Assembly (NCBI RefSeq): GCF_000167355.1
Contig: NZ_AAEW02000018.1
Span: 1-64,000, forward strand
Length of the DNA stretch: 64,000 nt
Direction: 5' to 3'
From: Desulfuromonas acetoxidans DSM 684
GTDB taxonomy: Bacteria > Desulfobacterota > Desulfuromonadia > Desulfuromonadales > Desulfuromonadaceae
Shown here one piece after another: positions 36,086-64,000 of this stretch (position 1 is its first letter; every line of letters begins with the position of its first letter). Below the pieces are notes generated by a model, which saw only the letters and a program-made list of their open reading frames with translations, made no database searches and was not told where the DNA came from. The position numbers and the translations under genes are program-made.

Positions 36086-38247
36086 TGAACCACACCGCCA
36101 CCATTGCCCTGGCAGGCAACCCCAACTCCGGCAAAACCACCCTGTTCAACGCCATCACCGGCGCGCGTCAACATGTCGGCAACTATCCCGGCATCACTGT
36201 TGAACGCAAAGAAGGCTCCCTCAACCTTAACGACACCCGTGTCAACATCGTCGACCTGCCCGGCTGTTATTCACTGTCTGCTTTTTCCCAGGAAGAGCTG
36301 GTTGCCCGCAAGGTGCTGGTTGATGAGCGACCGGACATTGTTGTCGATATCGTCGATGCCACCAAACTGGAACGCCACCTGTATCTGGCCATCCAGTTTT
36401 TCGAGCTGGGCATCCCGGTGATGCTGACCCTCAACATGATGGATGAGGCGAATAAAAAAGGGTTGCGCATTGATACAGAAAAACTTTCAACCCTGCTCAA
36501 ATGCCCGGTGGTGGAAACCGTGGCCCGTTCCGGCGAAGGCAAGCAGGAACTTTTGGAAAAAGCTCTGCACTACGCGGCGGATCGCGGTGGTGTCTGGGAA
36601 CCACTGGAGATCTCCTACGGCGCCGATCTCGACACGGCTCTCAATGCCATGGTGGAAAAGATCGAAGCCGCCCGTTTCATGACCAACCGCTATCCGGCAC
36701 GTTGGGTGGCCCTGAAATATCTGGAAAGCGATGACGAGATCGTCACCGCCGGACGCAGTATCGGCAGTGTGGCCTTTGAACTCGAAGAGATGGTCAGCGA
36801 AGTGGATACCCACTGCCGTACCACCCTCAACACAACACCAGAGGCCTTGATTGCCGACTACCGTTACGGCCTGATCAACTCGATCCTGCGTCAGGACATT
36901 ATCGAACGTCCTCAACAGGTAGACCGCCGCGAACTCACCGACAAACTGGATAACGTTCTGACCAACCGCCTGTTCGGTCCGCTGATCATGTTTGGCGTAC
37001 TCTACGCCATGTTCCAGATCACCTTCACCCTCGGCGAAATCCCCATGGGCTGGTTTGAAAGCTTTTTCGGTTGGCTCGGCAATACGGCTACAGCTCTGAT
37101 TCCCGACGGCATGCTGCAATCGCTGATCGTCTCCGGTGTCATCGACGGCGTCGGCGGTGTCATGGGCTTTGTCCCGTTGATCGCCATCATGTTCCTGATG
37201 ATCGCCTTTCTCGAAGATTCCGGCTACATGGCCCGCGTTGCTTACATGCTCGACCGCGTGTTGCGCATGTTCGGCCTGCACGGCTGCTCGGCCATGCCGT
37301 TTATCATCTCCGGCGGCATCATGGGTGGCTGCGCCGTGCCCGGCGTCATGGCCACCCGCACCCTGCGCAGTCCCAAGGAAAAATTGGCTACGCTGATCAC
37401 CGCCCCGTTTATGCCATGCGGTGCCAAGCTACCGGTGTTTCTGCTGCTCATCGCCGCCTTTTTCAGCGAGAACGAAGCGCAGATCATGTTCTCTATCACT
37501 CTGGGCGCCTGGGCCATGGCCCTGCTGGTCTCTAAATTACTGCGCTCAACCATCATCAAGGGCGAACCGACGCCGTTCGTCATGGAACTGCCACCCTACC
37601 GTCTGCCGACCCTGCGTGGCGTGCTGATTCACACCTGGGAACGGGTGTGGCAATACATCCGCAAGGCCGGGACCGTTATTCTGGCCGTGTCCATTTTGCT
37701 GTGGGCGGCCATGACATTTCCGCAATTGCCGGAAAATCAGGTTAACGCCTTTAACCAGCAACGCATTGCCGTCGCCACCAATGTGATGGATATGGAACAA
37801 CGCTCCACCCAGCTCGAAAAGATTGACAACCAGGAAGCTCAAGCCACGTTGCGTTACTCCGTGGCAGGCCAGATAGGCAGTTTCTTTGAACCGGTTAGTC
37901 AGTGGGCCGGATTTGACTGGCGCACCAATATCGCCCTAGTTGGTGGATTTGCCGCCAAAGAGGTGATTGTTTCCACCTTCGGCACCGCTTATTCGCTGGG
38001 CGAGATCGATCCGGAAGAGGCCGCGCCATTGTCGCATCAGATCGCCACCGATCCGAGCTGGAACAAGTACACGGCCATCTCGCTGATCATCTTTGTGCTG
38101 CTCTACGCACCGTGCTTTGTCACCGTGGTGACCATGGCCAAGGAGTCGTCATGGGGCTGGGCGGTGTTTTCTACAGTGTTTAACACCGCGCTCGGCTTTG
38201 GACTGGCGGTGGCGGTGTATCAGGTTGGCACTCGGTTATTGACTTAA
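36085..38247 (+). CDS. feoB: FeoB, ferrous iron transporter
   Basis: A 720-residue protein with an N-terminal G domain: GNPNSGKTTLFNAITG (G1, about 9-24), GNYPGITVERKEG (G2/switch I), DLPGCYSL (G3) and LNMMDEA (G4). A GDI-like helical linker and a membrane domain with Gate motifs follow (GCSAMPFIISGGIMGGCAVPG, about 405-425, and MPCGAKLPVF, about 442). Known FeoB imports Fe2+. It overlaps feoA and is followed after 13 bp by a small Cys-rich gene. Confidence 0.97.
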   Translation: MNHTATIALAGNPNSGKTTLFNAITGARQHVGNYPGITVERKEGSLNLNDTRVNIVDLPGCYSLSAFSQEELVARKVLVDERPDIVVDIVDATKLERHLYLAIQFFELGIPVMLTLNMMDEANKKGLRIDTEKLSTLLKCPVVETVARSGEGKQELLEKALHYAADRGGVWEPLEISYGADLDTALNAMVEKIEAARFMTNRYPARWVALKYLESDDEIVTAGRSIGSVAFELEEMVSEVDTHCRTTLNTTPEALIADYRYGLINSILRQDIIERPQQVDRRELTDKLDNVLTNRLFGPLIMFGVLYAMFQITFTLGEIPMGWFESFFGWLGNTATALIPDGMLQSLIVSGVIDGVGGVMGFVPLIAIMFLMIAFLEDSGYMARVAYMLDRVLRMFGLHGCSAMPFIISGGIMGGCAVPGVMATRTLRSPKEKLATLITAPFMPCGAKLPVFLLLIAAFFSENEAQIMFSITLGAWAMALLVSKLLRSTIIKGEPTPFVMELPPYRLPTLRGVLIHTWERVWQYIRKAGTVILAVSILLWAAMTFPQLPENQVNAFNQQRIAVATNVMDMEQRSTQLEKIDNQEAQATLRYSVAGQIGSFFEPVSQWAGFDWRTNIALVGGFAAKEVIVSTFGTAYSLGEIDPEEAAPLSHQIATDPSWNKYTAISLIIFVLLYAPCFVTVVTMAKESSWGWAVFSTVFNTALGFGLAVAVYQVGTRLLT

Positions 38248-38260
38248 AGGAGGACATATT

Positions 38261-38434
38261 ATGACGTTAGATCTTTTTTTAACCCTTTGCGTTATCGTCA
38301 TTGCCGCGCTTTATCTGATTCGCACGTTGCGCCGCCAAAAGAATAGTGGTGGAGGATGCTCGTGTGGTTCGGGGGGATCGTGTTGCGGTGGGGGACAGGA
38401 GTCTGGTGGATGTTGCCAGGGGCAGCACCATTAA
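38261..38434 (+). CDS. FeoB-associated Cys-rich membrane protein
   Basis: A 57-residue protein (MTLDLFLTLCVIVIAALYLI at the N terminus): one membrane helix (about 4-21), an RTLRRQK basic turn, then a Gly/Cys tail with seven cysteines (CSCGSGGSCCGGG then CC) and a terminal HH. A strong ribosome-binding site (AAAGGAGGA) lies 6 nt before the ATG, 13 bp after feoB. Small Cys-rich proteins of this plan recur after feoB and may handle iron or sense redox. Confidence 0.8.
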   Translation: MTLDLFLTLCVIVIAALYLIRTLRRQKNSGGGCSCGSGGSCCGGGQESGGCCQGQHH

Positions 38435-38444
38435 TTTGAAACCA

Positions 38445-38477
38445 CAAGGGAGAGTTGGAACATTCAGCTCTCCCTTG
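38445..38477 (+). terminator. hairpin after the feo operon
   Basis: CAAGGGAGAG (38445-38454) pairs perfectly with CTCTCCCTTG (38468-38477). The following sequence is only modestly T-rich, so this may be a weak terminator or a 3'-end-stabilising hairpin. Confidence 0.55.
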
Positions 38478-53774: not shown

Positions 53775-54062
53775 GGGAAAGGGGACAGGCTACTTCTCCT
53801 GTCTCCTCGGCCTTCCCTTTGACCTTATTGTCGACTCAAGCCCAAATTTCAAACACATCTTTCGTTGCCATACCCCGTCTCCGAATGGTGCCTGCCGGGA
53901 TAAGCTCTCAAGAAACATGGGCCTCTCTTTTTCCGTCATCTCTGCATCAACGAATTCTAGAAACACAAAGGGGTCAAGTCGTCCATTGACCAACCTATCT
54001 TCAGGAGGGAGTAAGGCCTTGAATGACAACATTTCAGCCAGACATTGCTTGAAAAAATGCAA
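53775..54062 (-). pseudogene. RAYT relic 2 (direct repeat of relic 1)
   Basis: It encodes the same transposase tail (EFVDAEMTEKERPMFLESLS ... GLESTIRSKGRPRR) and ends in one REP copy, AAAGGGGACAGGCTACTT (53778-53795). About 183 bp (53775-53957) is roughly 90% identical to 52256-52439. Upstream of residue EF the two copies are unrelated, so each was truncated independently or inserted into different sequence. Confidence 0.75.
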
Positions 54063-54064
54063 AT

Positions 54065-54703
54065 CTATTCGCCATTCTCAATCTGGCTAAATTCTGTCTC
54101 CTCACGAAACAGCGGTTTTATCAGAATGTTATTAATATGCCCCCACGACGTTTTCCGCTGGCGCGTATTGAATGCATGCACATTTCGCGCATGTGAAATT
54201 TTAACTCCCCCTATCGCATAAATCAGGCTATTCCCGGCATGACTGACCTTCGTCTTGCCTTTTGAGATGACAAGGCTGCCATTTCCCAAGCTTCCATCGT
54301 GGCCAATATCGACATCACCACCACAGACAATGACATTGTTGCCACTATGCGAGATGTCGAGCGAACCGGATGAAATAATGATCGAGTTTGTTGCGTGGGC
54401 AATCGTGAGGTTTTGACCGGCAATGACCAATTGATTATGAACTCGGGTCAACGTAAGCGGCTCGTTGTCGCGAATCACGCTCACCGGCGAAATCGTCTCG
54501 AAAACGGCTTTCCTCTCTTGGGGAATCTCCAGTCTGTCGAGAATGTCAGCCACGCCTTGTTGCGCTTTGGCAATGATTCTTTGCTGCTCGTAGGTAACAG
54601 GCTGCTCGGTCAGTTGCAGCAGACGGTCTCCGGTGTAGGTCGTGCAGGCTGAGACGGAAGCAATCACCAAGCCGATTAAGACGGTGCGAAGGACAAACGA
54701 CAT
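54065..54703 (-). CDS. lipoprotein with repetitive beta-rich domain
   Basis: A 212-residue protein with a signal ending in the lipobox VSAC (Cys about 20), then a helical segment (about 35-70), then about 100 residues of repeats of about 20-25 aa: LTIAHATNSIIISSGS, LDISHSGNNVIVCGGD, TKVSHAGNSLIYAIGG, VKISHARN. The repeating x-I-S-H-x-x-N-S-I-I pattern suggests a small beta-solenoid with stacked His/Asn ladders. No family is recognised. It ends 3 bp from RAYT relic 2, which may have altered its 3' flank. Confidence 0.7.
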   Translation of the reverse strand: MSFVLRTVLIGLVIASVSACTTYTGDRLLQLTEQPVTYEQQRIIAKAQQGVADILDRLEIPQERKAVFETISPVSVIRDNEPLTLTRVHNQLVIAGQNLTIAHATNSIIISSGSLDISHSGNNVIVCGGDVDIGHDGSLGNGSLVISKGKTKVSHAGNSLIYAIGGVKISHARNVHAFNTRQRKTSWGHINNILIKPLFREETEFSQIENGE

Positions 54704-54900
54704 TTTTCTCCCAGGGATAAAAAAGCAGAATTTGTGAAACCTCGCTCATCTTATACACTTGGGGATTAATGAACAATCTTGATTCCGATCTAATCACACG
54801 TTCTTCGTCGAACACCGCAGGTTGCCCGTTTGACACCTCTCCCGCAAACGCGGATAATGACGCCTCACAACACACTGCCTCTCATCCCAAGGCTCGATCC

Positions 54901-56304
54901 ATGACCCAGCCCCGCACTTACGTCACCGATTTCCACATCCACTCCCATTACTCGCGTGCCACCAGCAAGCAATTGACGCCGGAATATCTGGCCTACTGGG
55001 CGCGCATCAAAGGAGTGCATGTGGTCGGCAGTGGCGACATCACCCATCCGGGCTGGCTGGCCGAGCTGAAGGAAAAACTGGAACCGGCCGAGGAAGGATT
55101 GTTTCGCCTCAAACCGGAGTACGCCGATGTGCCGGAGGTCGAGGACTTCCCAGCACCGGATGGCGAAGTGCGTTTCATGCTTACCGGCGAGATCAGCAAC
55201 ATCTACAAAAAAGCCGGTAAGGTGCGCAAGGTGCACAATGTGATCTGCCTGCCGGACTTTGCCAGCGCTGAGGCGCTGCAGACCAGGCTGGATAAGATCG
55301 GCAACATCACTTCGGACGGGCGGCCGATTCTTGGGCTGGATTCCAAAGACTTGTTTGACCTGTGCCTGAATGTGTGCGAGCGCACGATGTTTATTCCGGC
55401 GCATATCTGGACGCCGTGGTTCTCGGCGCTGGGCGCTAAGTCGGGTTTTGACAATTTGACGGAATGTTACGAGGAGCTGACCCCGCTGCTGGCGGCGGTG
55501 GAGATGGGCCTGTCCACGGACCCGGCCATCAACTGGATGTGTTCGTTTCTCGACGACTTCACCCTGCTGGCCAACTCCGACGCCCATTCACCGGAAAAGC
55601 TGGGGCGCAACGCCAACCTGTTGGCCACGGACCTGAGCTATACGGCGCTGCGTGAGGCGGTGATCAAGGGCGACGACGGCTTTGTCGGCACCATTTCGTT
55701 TTTTCCCCAGGAGGGCAAATACCACTTTGACGGCCACCGCAAGTGCGGGGTGTGTTTTGATCCGGTGGAGACTTTTCGCCACGACGGCCTATGCCCGGAG
55801 TGCGGCAAACCGCTGACCGTAGGCGTGGCCAACCGGGTGGTACAACTCTCTGATCGCAGCGATATTTTGCAGCGGCCGAATCGCAAACCGTTTCATTCAC
55901 TTATCCCACTCAAAGAGCTGCTCAGCGAGCTGATGGATGTCGGACCGACCAGTAAAAAAGTAGCCAAGGTCTATCAGGGGTATATCCGCCAATGGGGACC
56001 AGAGCTGACAATCCTCATGGACCTGCCACTCGACATCATCGAACAACAGAGCGACGCCCTGTTTGCCGAGGCGATCCGTCGCATGCGCGCCGGAGAGATT
56101 CTCATCACAGAAGGCTACGACGGCGAATACGGTCGCATCCGCGTGTTTGACGACGGCGAGAAGGAACGCTTCACGGCACAGGGCCAACATGCCGCAGCGC
56201 TGCAGCCGCGCAAAAAGCGCTCCCTGCTCACCTTTGATCTGGAGGAATACCGCCGCCTGCTAACCCAAAAAGAACGGAAAGTGCACCTCACAGACATGGA
56301 ATAA
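54901..56304 (+). CDS. EndoQ-like PHP-domain DNA repair nuclease (TIGR00375-type)
   Basis: A 467-residue protein with a PHP-type metal site: DFHIHSHYSRA (about 9-19), GSGDITHPGWL (about 42-52) and NSDAHSPEKLGRNA (about 224-237). A zinc-finger pair follows (CGVCFD...CPECGK, about 282-303) and then a C-terminal HhH-like region. Known EndoQ cleaves 5' of deaminated bases in archaea and some bacteria. ATG 54901 is used because the conserved N terminus begins there; the frame is open from 54769 but that extension is low-complexity. Confidence 0.8.
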   Translation: MTQPRTYVTDFHIHSHYSRATSKQLTPEYLAYWARIKGVHVVGSGDITHPGWLAELKEKLEPAEEGLFRLKPEYADVPEVEDFPAPDGEVRFMLTGEISNIYKKAGKVRKVHNVICLPDFASAEALQTRLDKIGNITSDGRPILGLDSKDLFDLCLNVCERTMFIPAHIWTPWFSALGAKSGFDNLTECYEELTPLLAAVEMGLSTDPAINWMCSFLDDFTLLANSDAHSPEKLGRNANLLATDLSYTALREAVIKGDDGFVGTISFFPQEGKYHFDGHRKCGVCFDPVETFRHDGLCPECGKPLTVGVANRVVQLSDRSDILQRPNRKPFHSLIPLKELLSELMDVGPTSKKVAKVYQGYIRQWGPELTILMDLPLDIIEQQSDALFAEAIRRMRAGEILITEGYDGEYGRIRVFDDGEKERFTAQGQHAAALQPRKKRSLLTFDLEEYRRLLTQKERKVHLTDME

Positions 56305-56379
56305 ACATCTTTTTTCTTACGTTTTTCGTCCGAGAAGTCGAAAAGAAAAGGACGCTAAAACGATAAGTTAGGATACCCC

Positions 56380-57357
56380 ATGCCCGTTCAAATCGTTCAA
56401 CAGTCTCAAAGCACACAAGTCCGCTCGGCTCCGCCGGTGAAGAACGGGCAAACGGACGATTTTTCTCGCATCCTCGTCCGAGCCCGAAATAGCGCACAAC
56501 CAGAGCAACGTCTTTCTTCGCCATCCTCGCCCCCACGCCATGTTCCGGCTATCTCAACCGACGCCAGTGATTGGCAGAAATATCGTGACGAACAGTTGCT
56601 CAGTAATCCCGGTGGCGAGAACTATTTCATCCCCAGCGCCGCTCAATCCGAAGAGTCCAGTACAATCGACAATCTCACCAAAGATCTGTCCGATGTGGTC
56701 GACAACATCGGCAACTTTTTCCAGAACCTGCTGTTTGGCGCTGAAACGCATTACCGCGATGAACAGGGCGAGGTGCAGACCAGTCAAAACCGTGGCCTGG
56801 TCGGCTCGCTGGTCGATTTGGTCTGCGATGTGGGCAGTGCTCTGAGTTTTGGCGCTTGGCGCCCTGACGGCGAAGCCGCCCCCGAAGGATTTCAGGAGCG
56901 CGCCAGCTTTGTCTTCGACAAACTGACGGAAGCGGTGGCTGACGATGTGGTGGCCGGGGTTGGTGGCAGTGTTAATCACATGGGCGAAGATCTGCTGCTG
57001 GCGGGCTGGAATCTGGTGGAAATGGTTCCCGATGCAACGATCAGCAATGTGGATGCGGCCGAAAAGGTAGTGTCCAATGTTTTTGACAATGGTCAGGTGG
57101 TCATTGATTATCTGACCGATGTGCTTCCCGGCGCAGAGGCCTGGCTACGCATTCACGCCACAGACCTCAACGACAACCAAGTGCCTGTTTTCTACAATCT
57201 GACAACCCCGGAAAACTTCACCGGCGACACCCGCTGGGAACAGGTCAGCAATACACCACTGCGCAAGGCACTCGAAACCGTTGGTTCCTTGTTAGCCGAC
57301 GGCGCCATGCTGATGCTTTTGGGGCAATTGCCGAGCACGTCTCAGGATCATCACTAG
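56380..57357 (+). CDS. unrecognised acidic protein
   Basis: A 325-residue protein without signal peptide. Residues 1-60 are Ser/Pro/Gln-rich and probably disordered; the rest is helical with amphipathic, Val/Asp-rich stretches (NLTKDLSDVVDNIGNFFQNL; SNVDAAEKVVSNVFDNGQVV) and glycine-bearing hydrophobic segments (GLVGSLVDLVCDVGSALSFG; VVAGVGGSVNHMGED) that could insert into membranes. No domain is recognised. It lies between the EndoQ gene (+) and the convergent rhombosortase gene. The plan (disordered N terminus, central G-rich amphipathic helices) is reminiscent of secreted effectors, but there is no direct evidence. Confidence 0.6.
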   Translation: MPVQIVQQSQSTQVRSAPPVKNGQTDDFSRILVRARNSAQPEQRLSSPSSPPRHVPAISTDASDWQKYRDEQLLSNPGGENYFIPSAAQSEESSTIDNLTKDLSDVVDNIGNFFQNLLFGAETHYRDEQGEVQTSQNRGLVGSLVDLVCDVGSALSFGAWRPDGEAAPEGFQERASFVFDKLTEAVADDVVAGVGGSVNHMGEDLLLAGWNLVEMVPDATISNVDAAEKVVSNVFDNGQVVIDYLTDVLPGAEAWLRIHATDLNDNQVPVFYNLTTPENFTGDTRWEQVSNTPLRKALETVGSLLADGAMLMLLGQLPSTSQDHH

Positions 57358-57361
57358 GATG

Positions 57362-57994
57362 TCATGATTCGTGTCGATGCTTTTGCTTTGCACCACACAC
57401 CGCAAAGGCGGCCAACCCGCCAAGCAATCCGCCCAGATGAGTCGTCACCACCGGATGACCGATGTCGCCTAAATGCAGGTGATGAAACACGACGTTACCG
57501 GTGGCGACTTCCCACACGGTCTTGCCCACCAGAGCGGCCAAAAACAGTCCACCGATTACACGACTGTCACTGTTTTTCATCAGCTCCAGACAACTGACGG
57601 CCATCAGACCATGGGCCACGCCGGACAGGCCACAAAGACCATAAACATAAATAACCCGCGACACCAGCAACGGCACGACCAGACTGCCGACAACGGTCCA
57701 CAACAGAAACATGAAGCGCCGCGCGTGCAAGCCATGATAAAGCAAAACAAAGGTCAGGCCGTCAATCAGCAGATGGTACCCGCTGACATGCACCCACGGC
57801 CAGGTGAACAATCGCCACCACTGACCGGAGGCAACCGCTGAGGCATCGAACATCAATGCCGTGGTCGGCACGCCAGACCAAAACAGAGAGACATTGCACA
57901 GCCCGAGCACGGCAATCCAGAGCAGTGCAACTGAGAACGGGCTGGATGGGGTGGCGATGGTGGCCCCTTTGATGGTGGTATCGGCAACAGACAT
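57362..57994 (-). CDS. rrtA: rhombosortase (GlyGly-CTERM processing rhomboid protease)
   Basis: A 210-residue rhomboid-family intramembrane protease with about six helices. The active-site Ser is in GLSGVAHGLM (about 122-131) and the His in VVTTHLGGLLGG (about 184-195), together with the W-R-L-F-T-W-P-W-V-H segment (about 60-69). GLSGVxHG is the rhombosortase signature. AAGGAGAAG precedes the ATG. It lies 68 bp downstream of, and in the same orientation as, a VIT-VWA gene ending in a GlyGly-CTERM-like tail, its likely substrate. Confidence 0.82.
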   Translation of the reverse strand: MSVADTTIKGATIATPSSPFSVALLWIAVLGLCNVSLFWSGVPTTALMFDASAVASGQWWRLFTWPWVHVSGYHLLIDGLTFVLLYHGLHARRFMFLLWTVVGSLVVPLLVSRVIYVYGLCGLSGVAHGLMAVSCLELMKNSDSRVIGGLFLAALVGKTVWEVATGNVVFHHLHLGDIGHPVVTTHLGGLLGGLAAFAVCGAKQKHRHES

Positions 57995-58016
57995 GAAGCT
58001 TCTCCTTGACGATAAG

Positions 58017-58042
58017 GCCGGGTACGCATGTGCGCACCCGGC
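58017..58042 (-). other. intercistronic hairpin
   Basis: GCCGGGT (58017-58023) pairs with ACCCGGC (58036-58042), with further pairing possible in the loop, between the VIT-VWA stop and the rhombosortase start. There is no T-run, so it is more likely a processing or attenuation hairpin that lowers protease expression relative to substrate. Confidence 0.4.
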
Positions 58043-58062
58043 GTTGAGAATGAGGCGGAGAG

Positions 58063-60159
58063 TTAACGGTTACGTTTGCGGCGGTTGAGCCAGGCCACCA
58101 GTGGCACGGCGATCAGGCTCACCGGGCCGGAACCGTGGCCGATACCGGGTGACGGACGGTTGTTGAAGGTACTGGTCTGTTGAGCCGGAGCCGAAGCATC
58201 ATCGGTTGAGCGCTGTTGCGGCGTGTTATCGACGCGGTAATTGCGCACCGGTTGCTGACTGCGTTGCTGTTGGGCCTGGCGTTCCTTGGCCACGCGGTCG
58301 GCGTTGCGACGGCTGATCCCTTCTTGCTCGTAGACATCGTCGTTAAGCACCAGCATCGAGGTGTAATCGGTGACCAGGGAGTAATGGACGCCGAGGTCAA
58401 CAATCTGGCTGGTGAGCTGTTCTGTTTCGCCCAGCTCGCGGACCTCGGCCATCAGTTCGTCAATGCGGGACAGCGCCCATAACCGCTCCAGTTCCGGGTT
58501 ATCTGTCGCCACCTCGGGCAACATGGCGGTGCAGCGCCATTCTTTCTCTTCGCCGGAGATGCGCGCTTTCATTTTGATCGTCACCTCGCCGGAGCCGTGG
58601 TAGTGACCGAACAGCACCAGTTGCTGACCGAGATAGAGGTTGCCGATGGTGGCCGGAGTCAGGTCATCGACCTTTTCACCGTCGATTTCAATGCGCACAT
58701 CATGCATCTTTTCGTAGAGCACTTTCGCTTTGGCCTGAATCAACCGACCCTGGATATCGTCCACATCGGAAATCTGCATGGCAAAGCCCCCGGAATCTTT
58801 GGCGAGGCGGTCGAGCAGCGGTCGATTGGCGCTGTTGCCGATAACAAAGGTGAACAGGCGCACGTCGTACTCGGTGAGCAATTGCAAAAACTCGCGCTGT
58901 TCGGTGCGACCAACATTGGCGACACCGTCGGTGACCAACACAATGGAGGTGGTGCGGTCGTCGTCCAGGCGACGGCAGGCGGTTTCCAACCCGGCAAACA
59001 GGTTGGTGCTGCCTCCGGCGGCGATGGTTTTGACGCGGTTGATCCATTGGCCGACGGCTTCCGGGGTGGCGGTGACAAAACCACGGGTCAGGTCAGCGGC
59101 GGATTGATTAAAGGTGATGATGCGAAAACGGTCGTTGCTGTTGAGTTTGCCCAACGTCTGGCTGACACCATCGGCCAGGGTGGCGATTTTGTGGCCATCC
59201 ATGCTGCCGGACACGTCGAGAACAAAGGTCCAGTCGGTGCCTTCGGTAATCGGCTGCAGATCCGCCGCCGGAGTGACCACCAGCATCATGGTGCCGGTTG
59301 CATTGCGGTCAGCTTTGTAGGGGATCAACTCGATGCGCGCCGGGGTGGTGTCATCCAAACGGTAGAGAAAGACGATATCCTTGTTGAGGCTCGCTCCGGC
59401 GGGACGGTCGATGGTGACATCGACAATTTGGTTGTTGCCCTGCTCGCCGCCCTGTTCACTTGCCTCCTCGCCGTCACCATGTGTCGCGCCGCCATACTGC
59501 ACCACGGCTTCGTTTTCCAGACCGGGCAGACGCACATCCTTGATGGGAAAAGCGGATTTCAGTTGCAGATGGAAATGAAACGGACCGGACACGCGATCAT
59601 CCACCGACCAGAACGACAGGCGCTCTTCGTCGGTATTGCCTTCGCGCAGCGGATAAAGATAGCGGCCAATATTGAGGTCAATTGACATCGGCTGATAGTA
59701 GACCAGCCGCACCCGCACATCGGCCTGGGGCGGGATATTGCCGATGCGGGTGTCAAAGCTTTTGAAATCGTTCTTTTCGGCCAGGGCCACTTGGTTGCCC
59801 TGGGCTTTCTGCTGCTCGTAAATCTGGCGGGAACGTTCCTTTTCCACCACTTCGCCGAGAATTTCCCGTTCACCGACCCACATAGACAGCTCAGACAGGC
59901 TGGCCTGATGGGGCAACGGAAACGAGTAGAGCCCCTCAATAGCGCTGGTGCCGCTGTTGGTAAACACCTGATCCACCTCGGTGCGGACAAAGCCGTTATT
60001 GATGGTGACATCGACCCGGTGGGCGCTGATAGCCAGAGCGGCATCGTCGTTGGCGCCGACGGGCTTGAGCAGACCGGCGGCCAGCGCCGTGCCGGACAGA
60101 AACAAACAGGTGGTGATTGCAATCAATGGAATTAGGGTTTTCTTCAGTAATGATCTCAT
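58063..60159 (-). CDS. VIT-VWA surface protein with GlyGly-CTERM-like tail
   Basis: A 698-residue exported protein: signal peptide (about 1-27), VIT domain (VDVTINNGFVRTEVDQVFTN ... EGLYSFPLPHQASLSEL, about 48-175), then a VWA domain with the MIDAS motif DVSGSMDGHK (about 314-323), TDGVANVG (about 421) and the conserved Thr region. A Gln/Arg/Pro-rich linker follows, and the C terminus has the sorting pattern GIGHGSGPVSLIAVPLVAWL then RRKRNR: Gly/Ser turn, one helix, Arg cluster. Related VIT-VWA proteins are usually LPXTG-sortase targets; here the tail suits the adjacent rhombosortase. AAAGGAGAC precedes the ATG, with a sigma-54 promoter upstream. Confidence 0.85.
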   Translation of the reverse strand: MRSLLKKTLIPLIAITTCLFLSGTALAAGLLKPVGANDDAALAISAHRVDVTINNGFVRTEVDQVFTNSGTSAIEGLYSFPLPHQASLSELSMWVGEREILGEVVEKERSRQIYEQQKAQGNQVALAEKNDFKSFDTRIGNIPPQADVRVRLVYYQPMSIDLNIGRYLYPLREGNTDEERLSFWSVDDRVSGPFHFHLQLKSAFPIKDVRLPGLENEAVVQYGGATHGDGEEASEQGGEQGNNQIVDVTIDRPAGASLNKDIVFLYRLDDTTPARIELIPYKADRNATGTMMLVVTPAADLQPITEGTDWTFVLDVSGSMDGHKIATLADGVSQTLGKLNSNDRFRIITFNQSAADLTRGFVTATPEAVGQWINRVKTIAAGGSTNLFAGLETACRRLDDDRTTSIVLVTDGVANVGRTEQREFLQLLTEYDVRLFTFVIGNSANRPLLDRLAKDSGGFAMQISDVDDIQGRLIQAKAKVLYEKMHDVRIEIDGEKVDDLTPATIGNLYLGQQLVLFGHYHGSGEVTIKMKARISGEEKEWRCTAMLPEVATDNPELERLWALSRIDELMAEVRELGETEQLTSQIVDLGVHYSLVTDYTSMLVLNDDVYEQEGISRRNADRVAKERQAQQQRSQQPVRNYRVDNTPQQRSTDDASAPAQQTSTFNNRPSPGIGHGSGPVSLIAVPLVAWLNRRKRNR

Positions 60160-60200
60160 GACAAGTCTCCTTTACAATAGGTAAGATGACTTTCTCTATC

Positions 60201-60215
60201 GCAGAAGACGTGCCA
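60201..60215 (-). promoter_or_regulatory. sigma-54 (-24/-12) promoter of the VIT-VWA gene
   Basis: On the minus strand TGGCACGTCTTCTGC matches the consensus TGGCACG-N4-TTGC at all positions but one, with the required GG-to-GC spacing. It lies about 42 bp upstream of the VIT-VWA ATG. The divergent neighbour is a sigma-54 activator, which makes the site credible. Confidence 0.75.
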
Positions 60216-60312
60216 CTTTTTTGCAATCCACGTAAGACACTGAAACTAAAAGATTCCTATTTACAAACAAAACAATAAAGCCATTCCCGCAAAACAACAC
60301 TCTGGCATTTTA

Positions 60313-60329
60313 TGTACAATCGATGTACA
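60313..60329. promoter_or_regulatory. paired TGTACA motif, candidate activator-binding site
   Basis: TGTACAATCGATGTACA holds two self-palindromic TGTACA hexamers 11 bp apart. It is about 125-140 bp upstream of the predicted sigma-54 start site (a usual enhancer distance) and overlaps the 5' end of the activator gene, so it could serve both activation of the divergent operon and autoregulation. Confidence 0.45.
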
Positions 60330-60337
60330 AAATATGT

Positions 60338-61801
60338 ATGACGACTCAATACAAACTAACCAACGAAGAGCGAGATTTTTTCCTCCAGGTGAGCGAAGCA
60401 GCGTTCAGCAATCCGTTCAGCGATGCCCGCGACGGTGCCGACCGCGCCTTGGCCGGTATCAGCGGTAGCGATCGCGACCGGGCTTTGCAGGGAGCTACCA
60501 AGGCAATCCGACAACGGCTGAGCGATCTGAACAGCCAGGGACGCGCCAATCTGGCGCTGTACGATGGTGCAGACCGGCAGTTATTGCTCACCGCCATCCT
60601 GTTCGATCAGTATCATGTCTCCCTGCCCCAGTTTGACGCCCTGATCGTGGAGCAAATTCAGGCCGGAGAAGAACCGTGCGCCGTACCGTTTTCCGCCGAA
60701 GCCCTGGCCCGACTGCGTGACTACGGCTGCACCGCCCAGCAGGCGCGCCACTATTTCGCTTTTTTTTACCAACTGCGGCGCGGCTTCTTCTTCATCAACC
60801 AGCTGGTCGGCAGCAGCGCGTCGATGCGCACCCTGCGCTGTCGGTTGTGGAACACGATCTTCACCCACGACACCCAGCGCTACGAAGTCACGCTGTGGAA
60901 TCGGCTGGAGGATTTCTCCACCCTGTTGCTTGGCGAAACCGGCACCGGCAAAGGCGCGGCCGCCGCGGCCATCGGTCGCTCCGGGTTTATCCCGTTTGAC
61001 GAAAAAAGCGGTCGCTTTGCCGAGAGCTTTACCCGCAACTTTATCGCCATCAACCTGTCGCAGTTTCCCGAAAGCCTCATCGAATCAGAACTGTTCGGCC
61101 ACAAAAAAGGCTCCTTTACCGGCGCGGTGGACAACCACCAGGGCGTGTTCGCCCGCTGCGTGCCGCACGGTGCCATCTTTCTCGACGAGATCGGCGACGT
61201 CAGCGTGCCGGTGCAGATCAAGCTGTTGCAGGTGCTGCAAGAGCGGCGCTTCTGCCCAGTGGGCAGCCATGTTGGCCAGAGTTTCCGTGGACGCATTATC
61301 GCCGCCACCAACCGCCCCCTCGAAGAGCTGCGCCGTGCCGGTAACTTCCGCGACGATTTCTATTATCGCCTGTGTTCCGATGTGATTGAGGTGCCAACCC
61401 TGCGCAAACAACTGGCCGAGTCTCCCGACGCGTTACCAAGCCTGTTGGAACGGCTGATTGTACGCATTGTCGGCACGGAGGATGTCAAGCTGGCAGAAAC
61501 CATTCACCATCAACTGATGGAAGATTTGCCTCCCAACTACAGCTGGCCGGGCAACGTGCGCGAGCTGGAACAGGCCGTGCGCCGCCTGCTGCTCAACGGC
61601 CACTACTACGGCGATCCTTACGCCCACACCGGCAGCGGCGACAACCTGCAAACTCTGGCTGACAGCGGCACCATGGATGCCCAACAGCTGCTGTCACGCT
61701 ATTGCCGCCAGCTTTATGACCGCTTCGGCACCTATGAAGAGGTGGCACGGCGCACCCGATTGGATCGCCGCACGGTGAAAAAATATATTCAAGGGGATTA
61801 G
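60338..61801 (+). CDS. sigma-54-dependent transcriptional activator (EBP)
   Basis: A 487-residue protein. An N-terminal region (about 1-165) is not a recognisable REC, GAF or PAS domain. The AAA+ domain has Walker A GETGTGKG (about 203), ELFGHKKGSFTGA with the sigma-54 loop (GSFTGA in place of GAFTGA), Walker B GAIFLDEIGD, and the WPGNVRELEQA sensor II motif. The C-terminal HTH is TYEEVARRTRLDRRTVKKYI. ATG 60338 is chosen; an in-frame ATG at 60323 lies inside the TGTACA pair. It is divergent from the VIT-VWA/rhombosortase operon, which has a sigma-54 promoter. Confidence 0.93.
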   Translation: MTTQYKLTNEERDFFLQVSEAAFSNPFSDARDGADRALAGISGSDRDRALQGATKAIRQRLSDLNSQGRANLALYDGADRQLLLTAILFDQYHVSLPQFDALIVEQIQAGEEPCAVPFSAEALARLRDYGCTAQQARHYFAFFYQLRRGFFFINQLVGSSASMRTLRCRLWNTIFTHDTQRYEVTLWNRLEDFSTLLLGETGTGKGAAAAAIGRSGFIPFDEKSGRFAESFTRNFIAINLSQFPESLIESELFGHKKGSFTGAVDNHQGVFARCVPHGAIFLDEIGDVSVPVQIKLLQVLQERRFCPVGSHVGQSFRGRIIAATNRPLEELRRAGNFRDDFYYRLCSDVIEVPTLRKQLAESPDALPSLLERLIVRIVGTEDVKLAETIHHQLMEDLPPNYSWPGNVRELEQAVRRLLLNGHYYGDPYAHTGSGDNLQTLADSGTMDAQQLLSRYCRQLYDRFGTYEEVARRTRLDRRTVKKYIQGD

Positions 61802-61816
61802 CGGGAGGGATTTTTC

Positions 61817-62050
61817 ACCACGGAGGCACGGAGGAAGGTCAACTTCTTTTTTTGCCACCGACAAAGCAGACAAAAGCTGGACCATTCTCTTGGGGCAAAA
61901 AAAAAGCAATTCACTTCACGATGACTTCACGATCAAATCTGATAAATGCCGCGATGAAAAATAACGCTCTTTTATCTCTGAAAAACTTCCATGCTTTCAA
62001 AAGAAGGTTTTCCTCAAATGGTTTTCTCCGTGCCTCAGTGTCTCCGTGGT
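61817..62050 (-). repeat. MITE-like dispersed repeat, copy B
   Basis: A 234-bp element bounded by ACCACGGAGGCACGGAG (61817-61833) and its inverse CTCCGTGCCTCAGTG then TCTCCGTGGT (62026-62050). The interior (61919-61951) is the reverse complement of the copy A core TTATCAGATTTGATCGTGAA, so the two copies are in opposite orientation. It separates the activator gene from dbpA. Confidence 0.7.
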
Positions 62051-62178
62051 TCAATGGTTTCAAGGCATGCCCCCCCCAAGCACAAAAACAATCGATGGTA
62101 TCAACGCCACCGATGTGCTAGAAGACACTGCACTTCAATCCATTATTCCGCCCTCAACGCTTCAAGACAGGACCCGCC

Positions 62179-63570
62179 GTGAGCCAAACCGATTTTTCTA
62201 CGCTGAAATTACAGCCTGCACTGCTTAAAAACCTCCAGTCCATCGGCTACGCGCACATGACGCCGATCCAGGCACAGAGCCTGCCACATATTCTGGCCGG
62301 GCGTGATGTCATCGGTCAGGGTAAAACCGGCTCGGGGAAAACCGCCGCCTTCGGACTGGGCCTGCTGCAAAAACTCAACGTCAAACGCTTTCACGTGCAA
62401 GCGCTGGTATTGTGTCCAACGCGTGAATTGGCCGATCAAGTGGCTAAAGAGATTCGCAAGCTGGCGCGCACCATCCACAACATCAAAGTCCTCACGCTGT
62501 GCGGCGGCATGCCGTTTGGCCCGCAACTCGGCTCTTTGGAGCACGGCGCTCACATCATCGTCGGCACACCGGGACGCATTGAGGAGCACGTGCGCAAAGG
62601 TGCGCTGAAGCTGGACAACCTCACCCTGCTGGTATTGGATGAAGCGGACCGCATGTTAGAAATGGGCTTCCAGGAAGCGCTGGATGCCATCATCGACCAG
62701 ACCCCGCAAACGCGTCAGACCCTGCTGTTCAGCGCAACGTTTCCGCGCCAGATTGAATCCATTGCAGGGCGGGTGATGAAGACACCGGTGATGGTGCAGG
62801 TGGAAGCCACCCACGACAGCGCGGTGATCACACAACATTTCTACGAAGTTGCCGATGACACGGCTGATCGCCAACAGGCCCTGCGTCGCCTGCTGCGTTA
62901 TTACCAACCAACATCTGCCGTGGTGTTTTGCAATACCAAGCAGGACACCCGCGATGTTGCTGACGACCTGCGCGAACACGGCTTCAGCGCCCTGGCACTG
63001 CATGGCGATCTGGAGCAACGCGAGCGGGATCAATCGCTGGTGCGATTCAGCAACGGCAGTGCCTCGATTCTCGTTGCCACGGATGTTGCTGCGCGCGGCC
63101 TCGATATAGAGGCGTTGGATGCCGTGTTCAACTATCACATTGCCCGCGATACCGAGGTGCATGTCCACCGGATTGGCCGCACGGGTCGGGCAGGAAGTCA
63201 CGGCATGGCCTGTTCGCTGTACAGTGCCAAAGAGCATTTCAAAGTGGAACGGCTGGCAAAGTTTCTCGATCAATCATTGACCGGTGAACCGCTGCCCGAG
63301 CCCTCTGATGAGACACAACCTGTCATGCAACCAGCCATGGCCACCTTGCAGATCGACAGTGGCAAGCGGCAGAAAATCAGGCCGGGCGATATCCTTGGCG
63401 CGCTGACCGGAGGCGATGGAATTCGCGGAGACGACGTCGGCAAAATCACTGTTTTCCCCAACTGGGCCTATGTTGCGGTCAAACGCGAGGCAGCAGCGGC
63501 CGCGTTAAAAAAACTCTGTAACGGCAAGTTGAAAGGACGCACCATCCGCGCACGACGCATTCGCGGTTAA
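62179..63570 (+). CDS. dbpA: DEAD-box RNA helicase DbpA
   Basis: A 463-residue protein with Q motif (YAHMTPIQAQSLP), motif I GQGKTGSGKTAAF, Ia PTRELADQ, Ib GTPGRI, II LDEADRML, III SATF, V ATDVAARGLDI and VI HRIGRTGRAG. A C-terminal RNA-binding domain (IRPGDILGALTGGDGIRGDDVGKI ... AYVAVKR) is the DbpA type that binds hairpin 92 of 23S rRNA, implying a role in 50S assembly. The start is GTG 62179, matching the family N terminus; no strong ribosome-binding site is visible. Confidence 0.93.
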   Translation: MSQTDFSTLKLQPALLKNLQSIGYAHMTPIQAQSLPHILAGRDVIGQGKTGSGKTAAFGLGLLQKLNVKRFHVQALVLCPTRELADQVAKEIRKLARTIHNIKVLTLCGGMPFGPQLGSLEHGAHIIVGTPGRIEEHVRKGALKLDNLTLLVLDEADRMLEMGFQEALDAIIDQTPQTRQTLLFSATFPRQIESIAGRVMKTPVMVQVEATHDSAVITQHFYEVADDTADRQQALRRLLRYYQPTSAVVFCNTKQDTRDVADDLREHGFSALALHGDLEQRERDQSLVRFSNGSASILVATDVAARGLDIEALDAVFNYHIARDTEVHVHRIGRTGRAGSHGMACSLYSAKEHFKVERLAKFLDQSLTGEPLPEPSDETQPVMQPAMATLQIDSGKRQKIRPGDILGALTGGDGIRGDDVGKITVFPNWAYVAVKREAAAAALKKLCNGKLKGRTIRARRIRG

Positions 63571-63839
63571 ATGACGCTGTGCATCTACACAGGTTACGCG
63601 CGTGGATTGTCATGCGAACTTTTACGCGTCTGGCGGTGTTTTCTGCGGCACAACCTTGGTAGAGTTACAACCATCAAGGCTTGTTGTGGCAGGCAAGTTT
63701 TGGTTCTCCTTTCTTCCTAGTTGATACACACATAAACAAAGCCGGTTCGGATGCCTCCCCGAACCGGCTTTGTTGCGTTTGATGTTCACTGCACCAAACC
63801 ACATCACGCTCTTAATCGCCCCTCACGGAGCATTGCTGA
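63571..63839. other. intergenic region between dbpA and the final gene
   Basis: No gene or RNA is seen. It contains the hairpin terminator annotated separately. The short frames present have no ribosome-binding site. Confidence 0.5.
63738..63771. terminator. bidirectional rho-independent terminator
   Basis: AAAGCCGGTTCGG (63738-63750) pairs with CCGAACCGGCTTT (63759-63771), a 13-bp perfect stem with an 8-nt loop and A/T-runs at the base on both sides. It lies between convergent dbpA (+) and the partial minus-strand gene. Confidence 0.85.
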
Positions 63840-64000
63840 TCACAGAATATCTTCCATCGGCATCCACTTCCAGAACGTCATTTTCAGCCGTTTACCCCAG
63901 GGCGCGAAGCGGTCCGGGTTATCCTCGGCGCTGTTCCAGCTGTTGCCGGGGGCCATGTCACGCTCGATCTCCAGCTCCACCTGCTGAGCCAAATGCGGAT
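63840..64000 (-). CDS. C-terminal fragment, possibly phospholipase D / cardiolipin synthase family
   Basis: The last 52 codons or so of a minus-strand gene that continues beyond the window. It reads HLAQQVELEIERDMAPGNSW, then NPDRFAPWGKRLKMTFWKWM, and ends PMEDIL followed by TGA at 63840. The ending (W-x-x-R-x-K... then P-x-E-x-L at the C terminus) resembles cardiolipin synthase C-type PLD proteins, which end in a hydrophobic LPxExxL. The identity is tentative without the HKD motifs, which lie outside the window. Confidence 0.4.
   Translation of the reverse strand, partial: PHLAQQVELEIERDMAPGNSWNSAEDNPDRFAPWGKRLKMTFWKWMPMEDIL

What the first reader, a model, noticed from the sequence alone, without database searches (positions are those of the whole stretch)
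57362..61801. Sigma-54 activator, rhombosortase and VIT-VWA substrate form one self-contained module
A divergent EBP, a 14/15 match sigma-54 promoter (60201-60215), a paired TGTACA motif about 125 bp upstream of it, a VIT-VWA protein with a GlyGly-CTERM-like tail and a rhombosortase lie together. VIT-VWA proteins of this build are normally paired with LPXTG sortases; here a rhomboid-type protease takes that place. The EBP has an unassigned N-terminal domain, so the inducing signal is open.
Basis: partly seen in the sequence, partly recalled or inferred. Interest (0 to 1): 0.75.

Follow-up and report, generated by a model that had tools for sequence, protein, structure and literature searches.

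The report
Sigma-54-controlled rhombosortase surface-protein cassette
A Desulfuromonas-type bacterium carries a three-gene unit in which a dedicated genetic switch appears to turn on one secreted adhesin-like protein together with the membrane protease that should trim and anchor it; the protein-protease pairing was already known in outline, but the shared switch, its DNA target and its link to membrane-lipid repair genes look new.

Summary
Confirmed and extended. The unit (rhombosortase, VIT-VWA, divergent EBP) recurs in Desulfuromonadia and in contigs labelled Desulfobacterota, Verrucomicrobiota and Kiritimatiellota. An operator model built without the window's clade has its best hit in 64 kb at 60294-60337, abutting a revised EBP start (60338), 79 bp from the sigma-54 box. 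The same spacing occurs at three relatives' promoters with no EBP gene behind the operator, so it is an enhancer, not only the EBP's own promoter. The VIT-VWA tail carries GSGPV, not GlyGly; this motif goes with one rhombosortase clade, and each of 20 genomes with the tail has just one: a dedicated pair. Not new: VIT-VWA proteins with rhombosortase, sortase or exosortase tails, and an adjacent dedicated pair in Desulfuromonas acetoxidans, were published in 2011. Apparently new: the EBP family (helical N-domain without a significant structural match) and its co-control, in two relatives' genomes, of this cassette and a phospholipid-acyltransferase/amidohydrolase operon. Best mechanism: autoregulated sigma-54 control of a dedicated anchoring cassette; lipid attachment and signal are inferred. 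Caveat: rpoN is frameshifted in this draft assembly.

The parts
57362..57994 (-). Rhombosortase (210 aa), SGxxH-type active site (GLCGLSGVAH), TM6 His in THLGG
   Evidence: TIGR03902 104.5 bits vs cut-off 84; S124, G125, H128 and H186 invariant in the 5-row alignment A1
58063..60159 (-). VIT-VWA protein (698 aa): VIT aa 45-154, VWA aa 311-470 with a DVSGS metal-site motif
   Evidence: Pfam VIT 112 bits and VWA 58.5 bits; TIGR03788 249 bits, below its 551.65 cut-off
58066..58167 (-). C-terminal sorting tail FNNRPSPGIGHGSGPVSLIAVPLVAWLNRRKRNR: GSGPV motif, short hydrophobic stretch, basic end
   Evidence: alignment A5: G12, G14, P15, W26, R29 invariant in 16 rows; only strong hit in the genome
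60201..60215 (-). sigma-54 -24/-12 promoter TGGCACGTCTTCTGC
   Evidence: conserved in orthologous loci
60294..60337 (+). EBP operator (enhancer): two CATN3ATG-like dyads (60306-60314 and 60328-60336), centres 22 bp apart; the family consensus also resembles TTGACA-N18-TACATT, so it may double as the EBP gene's own promoter
   Evidence: PWM built without own clade scores 30.5 (+) and 23.5 (-, 60305) versus 9.3 for the next unrelated site in 64 kb
60338..61801 (+). Sigma-54 enhancer-binding protein (revised start)
   Evidence: Sigma54_activat 146.7 bits, AAA_lid_14; start by comparison with orthologues
60338..60910 (+). N-terminal all-helical domain of the EBP, no assigned family
   Evidence: AlphaFold2 mean pLDDT 90.7 from 59 sequences; no Foldseek PDB match with E<=0.001
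60908..61594 (+). AAA+ domain; GAFTGA loop reads GSFTGA here (GAFTGA in 7 of the 8 other sequences aligned)
61718..61801 (+). C-terminal helix-turn-helix-like segment YEEVARRTRLDRRTVKKYI
   Evidence: read from sequence; only sub-threshold HTH-type Pfam matches

Best explanation
A dedicated, autoregulated surface-anchoring cassette. The EBP binds two dyads just upstream of its own start codon; on an unknown signal read by its helical N-terminal domain it activates the sigma-54 promoter 79 bp away and turns on the VIT-VWA gene and the rhombosortase behind it. The VIT-VWA protein is exported, held by its C-terminal tail, and processed at or near the GSGPV motif by the co-expressed rhombosortase, whose only recognisable substrate in the genome it is. 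The new C-terminus is probably joined to a phosphatidylethanolamine-type lipid, as proposed for VesB of Vibrio cholerae, and the protein displayed at the surface. Shown by sequence: module conservation, operator-promoter geometry, enzyme-tail pairing, single target. Inferred: EBP binding, cleavage, lipid attachment, surface display, signal.
For: Module: of 277 class genomes, 19 have this rhombosortase type and 21 the VIT-VWA, 18 both; 16 of those 18 have the EBP beside the VIT-VWA, the other two being a contig edge (G101) and a genome with the EBP on another contig (G132). Of 78 named EBP loci, 18 have the VIT-VWA and 15 of these a rhombosortase on the contig; the three without are at contig ends or gaps. 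Enhancer: operator PWM; 79 bp to the sigma-54 TGG in the window and at the L062 amidohydrolase/acyltransferase promoter; operator plus box without an EBP gene behind it also in L070 and L171. Dedicated pair: the rhombosortases beside GSGPV-type tails fall in one 22-row clade, support 100/99; one strong tail hit in each of 20 of 24 genomes, none in the 4 without the tail. Lipid: glycerophosphoethanolamine on the VesB C-terminal glycine (PMC6219818, passages); a phospholipid-acyltransferase-type gene in 32 of 78 EBP loci. Type II secretin GspD above cut-off in G000.
Against: rpoN of this draft genome is split by a one-base difference from G008, separating its N-terminal part from the rest; if real, sigma-54 activation would fail. 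G000 has no amidohydrolase match and only partial, at best 34% identical matches to the acyltransferase fusion, so the lipid theme rests on relatives. The tail lacks GG and fails TIGR03501. No canonical Fis HTH Pfam match on the EBP. In 5 of 19 VIT-VWA loci the best box lies elsewhere, in several Geomonas loci none was found at the usual place, and in more distant members the operator-box offset is about 44 or 61-69, not 75-79. Some operator-like sites have no box at all (for example L068:5028, L071:449).
Confidence: 0.75

Rival explanations
1. The conserved 44-bp element is only the sigma-70 promoter of the EBP gene (TTGACA-N18-TACATT, leaderless transcript); the EBP acts elsewhere and the VIT-VWA operon answers to another activator.
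For: The consensus resembles TTGACA-N18-TACATT with the ATG 6 bases behind it.
Against: The same element with the sigma-54 box at offset 78-79 occurs at L062:13566, L070:3534 and L171:5055, where no EBP start follows; it often scores on both strands, as a dyad does; the -35-like half is weak in the window (CTGGCA), and a consensus scan reports no sigma-70-type promoter there.
Confidence: 0.12
2. The rhombosortase only cleaves the tail and releases the VIT-VWA protein; no lipid is attached.
For: Water could finish the reaction; the lipid on VesB is inferred from masses and the intact lipid peptide was not identified; VesC is released from cells by its own proteolysis (PMC13393428 abstract).
Against: Family precedent and the recurrent co-location of phospholipid-acyltransferase-type genes.
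Confidence: 0.3
3. In this strain the module is silent because rpoN is truly frameshifted.
For: rpoN reads as two ORFs of 115 and 390 aa; one of the two single-base differences from G008 found in the region lies in the junction.
Against: Draft assembly; the sigma-54 box, operator and three module genes look intact; EBP and VIT-VWA are 96% and 99% identical to G008.
Confidence: 0.1

Closest known systems
Rhombosortase / GlyGly-CTERM (Haft & Varghese 2011, PMC3237569; RssP-VesB of Vibrio cholerae, PMC6219818)
   Same: TIGR03902 enzyme, SGxxH active site, adjacent single target (a 'dedicated system'); vault/VWA targets already shown there; D. acetoxidans DSM 684 listed with one adjacent pair
   Different: Tail motif GSGPV not GG, not matched by TIGR03501; the words sigma, promoter, transcription, operon and acyltransferase do not occur in the 2011 text
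Marine proteobacterial sortase target TIGR03788 with sortase TIGR03784
   Same: VIT-VWA protein with a sorting tail next to its own sorting enzyme
   Different: Scores 249 against a cut-off of 551.65; no LPXTG; a rhomboid instead of a sortase
PEP-CTERM/exosortase with PrsK-PrsR (PMC1569441)
   Same: Sorting-signal proteins behind a conserved operator plus sigma-54 box
   Different: PrsR has a receiver domain and a histidine kinase partner; here a single EBP with an unassigned helical domain, encoded beside its target
Rhombotarget lipoprotein TIGR04179 plus rhombosortase
   Same: In L068 it is divergent from the same EBP family, with a sigma-54 box and operator
   Different: Unrelated substrate with a YTGAGS tail and another rhombosortase type

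Membership tests
Rhombosortase (TIGR03902) | HMM score above curated cut-off | tested here: met
   104.5 vs 84 bits
Rhombosortase (TIGR03902) | SGxxH in TM4 and catalytic His in TM6 | tested here: met
   S124-G-V-A-H128 and H186 invariant in A1; feature as described in PMC3237569 section 17
Rhombosortase (TIGR03902) | GlyGly-CTERM protein in the same genome | tested here: inconclusive
   TIGR03501 gives no match in G000 at E<=1; the partner tail is GSGPV. The paper says the HMM misses true cases (section 8) and itself lists a GlyGly-CTERM protein for D. acetoxidans DSM 684
GlyGly-CTERM (TIGR03501) | HMM match | tested here: not met
   none for the VIT-VWA protein
GlyGly-CTERM (TIGR03501) | tripartite tail: motif, hydrophobic stretch, basic end, at the extreme C-terminus | tested here: met
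   A5 alignment
GlyGly-CTERM (TIGR03501) | N-terminal signal peptide | tested here: inconclusive
   hydrophobic MRSLLKKTLIPLIAITTCLFLSGTALA read by eye; no predictor run
Marine sortase target (TIGR03788) | score above cut-off, LPXTG tail | tested here: not met
   249 of 551.65 bits; tail without LPXTG
Bacterial enhancer-binding protein | Sigma54_activat AAA+ domain with Walker motifs | tested here: met
   146.7 bits; GETGTGKG, FLDEIGD
Bacterial enhancer-binding protein | GAFTGA loop | tested here: inconclusive
   GSFTGA in the window, GAFTGA in 7 of 8 others, lost in the diverged G030
Bacterial enhancer-binding protein | Fis-type HTH | tested here: inconclusive
   only sub-threshold HTH-like Pfam hits at about 466-490
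PrsR-type regulator | response regulator receiver domain | tested here: not met
   no receiver domain match; TIGR02915 150.8 vs cut-off 502.6, AAA part only
RtcR (CARF-AAA-HTH) | N-terminal CARF domain | tested here: not met
   RtcR models match only from about residue 187 on; the predicted N-domain is all-helical

The most novel reading that the evidence does not exclude
This EBP family is a regulator of protein-to-phospholipid anchoring: its helical N-terminal domain senses the state of membrane phospholipid (for example lyso-PE), and it couples rhombosortase cassettes, which use PE as acceptor, to acyl-ACP-phospholipid O-acyltransferase and an amidohydrolase that repair or recycle the lipid. 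In two genomes (G103/L062 and G132/L096) one EBP's operator fronts both operons. The Desulfuromonas module is a reduced form that kept only the anchoring half.
Probability: 0.25. Interest if true: 0.75.

Novelty: new variant of a known kind. Interest (0 to 1): 0.52.

Why it matters
From the papers opened here, the rhombosortase reaction is worked out in one organism, V. cholerae, which has six candidate substrates. Here is a minimal one-enzyme, one-substrate unit with its own switch, a distinct recognition motif that co-varies with the enzyme type, and a recurrent tie to phospholipid-acyltransferase genes. That gives a simple handle for asking what rhombosortases recognise, whether PE is the acceptor, and what signal calls for it.

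Tried and rejected
Spacing test on ATGT in EBP orientation found nothing at 22 bp (1 of 71 loci; shuffles mean 0.16, maximum 1 at that spacing). I had looked on the wrong strand and at too fixed a word; the PWM replaced it.

Reading the 44-bp element as only the EBP's sigma-70 promoter was rejected on the three copies without an EBP start behind them. A defence-system reading of the RtcR-like AAA hit was rejected: the PADLOC match covers the AAA part only.

Fold of the N-domain: Foldseek PDB 0 matches with E<=0.001, VIA-align best Z 4.8, none of 5 or more, PDB sequences lowest E 0.046; no claim that the fold is new. Plasmid collection: two records, one 51-bp stretch each. Rfam: none in 54000-64000. 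The sigma-70 scan of 57200-62200 finds 2 promoter-like sites against 2.4 in shuffles.

Paper searches in whose listings I saw nothing on this EBP or on coupling of rhombosortase with phospholipid acyltransferase: (open-licence PMC only; two searches returned nothing). Papers opened: PMC3237569 sections 8, 12, 15, 17, outline and two term searches; PMC6219818 passages; PMC13393428 abstract and outline; PMC1569441 passages; PMC3162934 abstract, outline and passages; PMC7762298 passages and the figures/tables section.

Rows dropped: the rhombosortase tree left out ten listed redundant or partial loci and rows under 150 aa, and used the last 230 residues of long ones. The A5 tail model was built from 16 of the tails it then finds, so only the lack of a second hit per genome is informative. 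The operator consensus used 40 of 74 upstream regions, chosen for a TGTACA-like word at -14; 34 did not fit, some because the start was misplaced. One search lists 94 site-orientations at PWM >= 13 in 1.36 Mb, a low threshold; I quote those with a box.

Full report
What is there. Three genes lie together: rhombosortase 57362-57994(-), VIT-VWA 58063-60159(-) and a divergent EBP. Family scans agree. The VIT-VWA stop and the rhombosortase start are 68 bp apart, so one transcript is likely. The EBP start should move to 60338: orthologues begin at the corresponding place and the stretch before it is the operator.

Conservation. The same order is seen in G008, G032, G039, G037 and, cut by contig ends, G001. 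Over 277 genomes of the class the EBP N-domain is in 73 (E<=1e-10), this rhombosortase type in 19 (E<=1e-25), the VIT-VWA in 21 (E<=1e-120). Comparing the lists, 18 genomes have both enzyme and substrate and 16 of them the EBP next to the VIT-VWA (in G112 the rhombosortase is on another contig). G101 is cut by a contig edge; G132 has its EBP on another contig. G115 has the enzyme and a tail fragment at a contig edge. G121 and G123 have a VIT-VWA with a GGGALD-type tail and another rhombosortase, and no EBP of this family; G130 is a broken contig. A scan of named genomes gave 78 EBP loci, among them Malonomonas, Geomonas, Geobacter, Desulfobacterales, Acidobacteria, Verrucomicrobia, Kiritimatiellae and betaproteobacteria.

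Control region. In 75 loci scored, no EBP-strand box reached 10 of 12 consensus letters, while on the target strand 10 of 19 VIT-VWA loci, 5 of 20 acyltransferase/amidohydrolase loci, 5 of 15 other divergent genes and 5 of 21 loci without a called divergent gene did. The best box starts 119-130 bp before the EBP start in 14 of 19 VIT-VWA loci and 119-123 bp before it in 6 of 20 acyltransferase/amidohydrolase loci. A PWM from 40 upstream regions gives TTGaCAtt..aTG.ac.....aTgTACATtttaTGc: two CATN3ATG-like dyads 22 bp apart. Without the window's clade it scores the window site 30.5, the next unrelated site in 64 kb 9.3. Three copies have a sigma-54 box at offset 78-79 but no EBP start behind them: L062:13566 before amidohydrolase and acyltransferase genes, L070:3534 before a leftward gene, L171:5055 before the VIT-VWA of G132. 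In L062 and the window the operator-to-TGG distance is 79. This is the main evidence that the EBP reads the element as an enhancer. In distant members the offset is about 44 or 61-69 instead, and some operator-like sites have no box. In G000 the operator pattern occurs with 0-1 mismatches only here; three further sites with 3 mismatches compare with one in the backward-pattern control.

Two operons, one switch. L062 (the same contig as G103's L183) has the EBP facing VIT-VWA and rhombosortase, and an amidohydrolase-acyltransferase operon 7.5 kb away with its own operator and box. G132 is the mirror image: its only EBP of this family faces amidohydrolase and acyltransferase (L096, same contig as L172), and its VIT-VWA-rhombosortase pair on another contig has its own operator and box. 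So in two genomes the two operons appear to share the switch.

Enzyme and tail. Rhombosortases beside GSGPV, GTGPV, GSGPL or GSGPM tails have SGxxH and fall in one clade of 22 rows (100/99) in a 30-row, midpoint-rooted tree; two of the 22 (L177, L184) had no complete tail called, and SGxxH in L062 and L116 was read. Those beside GGGAMD, GGGALD, rhombotarget or other GGG tails have S, N, C or T at that place. G032 carries one of each kind, each next to a protein with the corresponding tail. A tail model finds one strong hit per genome in 20 of 24 genomes given, none in the other four. So the pair looks dedicated.

Wider neighbourhood. 44 of 78 EBP loci hold an acyltransferase fusion, amidohydrolase, VIT-VWA or rhombosortase; 33 have the acyltransferase or amidohydrolase, 19 the VIT-VWA or a rhombosortase, 8 both. 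Acyltransferase and amidohydrolase sets are BLAST clusters; one member of each was scored: L070 matches NF006386 acyl-[ACP]--phospholipid O-acyltransferase with 1483 bits against 1221, and PF04909. L068 pairs the EBP with rhombotarget lipoprotein TIGR04179, 299 against 150 bits, and a rhombosortase. G000 has no amidohydrolase match and only partial matches to the acyltransferase fusion.

What is known. PMC3237569 describes VWA/vault proteins with GlyGly-CTERM, LPXTG or PEP-CTERM tails (section 12) and lists D. acetoxidans DSM 684 with one adjacent pair (section 15). That strain's draft is 3.83 Mb in 51 contigs (PMC7762298 Table 1); G000 is 3,820,511 bases in 51 contigs, in one genus group with Desulfuromonas sp. 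BM513 (G001 and L057 share a 3073-bp contig). The window's G+C is 54-56% against 51.8% quoted for that genome. I infer that the window is this strain and the listed pair these two genes; no call proves it. VesB carries a glycerophosphoethanolamine-containing group on its C-terminal glycine (PMC6219818). Sigma-54 control of sorting-signal proteins has a precedent in PrsR/PEP-CTERM (PMC1569441).

Limits. No binding, cleavage or lipid was measured. rpoN in G000 is split into 115- and 390-aa frames; one of two single-base differences from G008 lies at the junction; sequencing error or real, I cannot tell. The signal is unknown: the N-domain is confidently predicted as helical (pLDDT 90.7) but has no significant structural neighbour.

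Noticed in passing
L185:503-1958 (G000 contig C3, about 37,002-38,457): rpoN of the window's genome is split into two frames, cutting off its N-terminal part; a one-base difference from G008 lies at the junction. G008, G002 and G007 are intact.
   Followed up: partly
window 61109-61126: The GAFTGA loop of the EBP reads GSFTGA in the window but GAFTGA in its 96% identical orthologue in G008.
   Followed up: no
L168, L169 (G121, G123): A third rhombosortase type (YCGLSGLLN) next to VIT-VWA proteins with GGGALDLWYGL tails, in genomes where no EBP of this family was found.
   Followed up: partly
L128:7922-8857: In a betaproteobacterium the EBP faces a ceramidase-family protein (Pfam 35.1 against 32.5 bits) with a sigma-54 box, another lipid-related neighbour of this EBP family.
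   Followed up: no
L110: A contig labelled Akkermansia muciniphila carries the full module; the label may be a binning error.
   Followed up: no
L184 and L134: VIT-VWA in L184 (G051) and the EBP N-terminal part in L134 (Geothermobacter) look interrupted in the assemblies.
   Followed up: no
window 56380-57357: A 325-aa ORF convergent with the rhombosortase has no Pfam match over cut-off and no NCBIfam match, and no BLAST match in the 11 relatives' stretches compared; not part of the module.
   Followed up: partly
L070:3534-3577: An extra operator plus sigma-54 box (offset 79) in Geomobilimonas luticola, upstream of a leftward membrane-protein-like gene; a possible further regulon member.
   Followed up: partly
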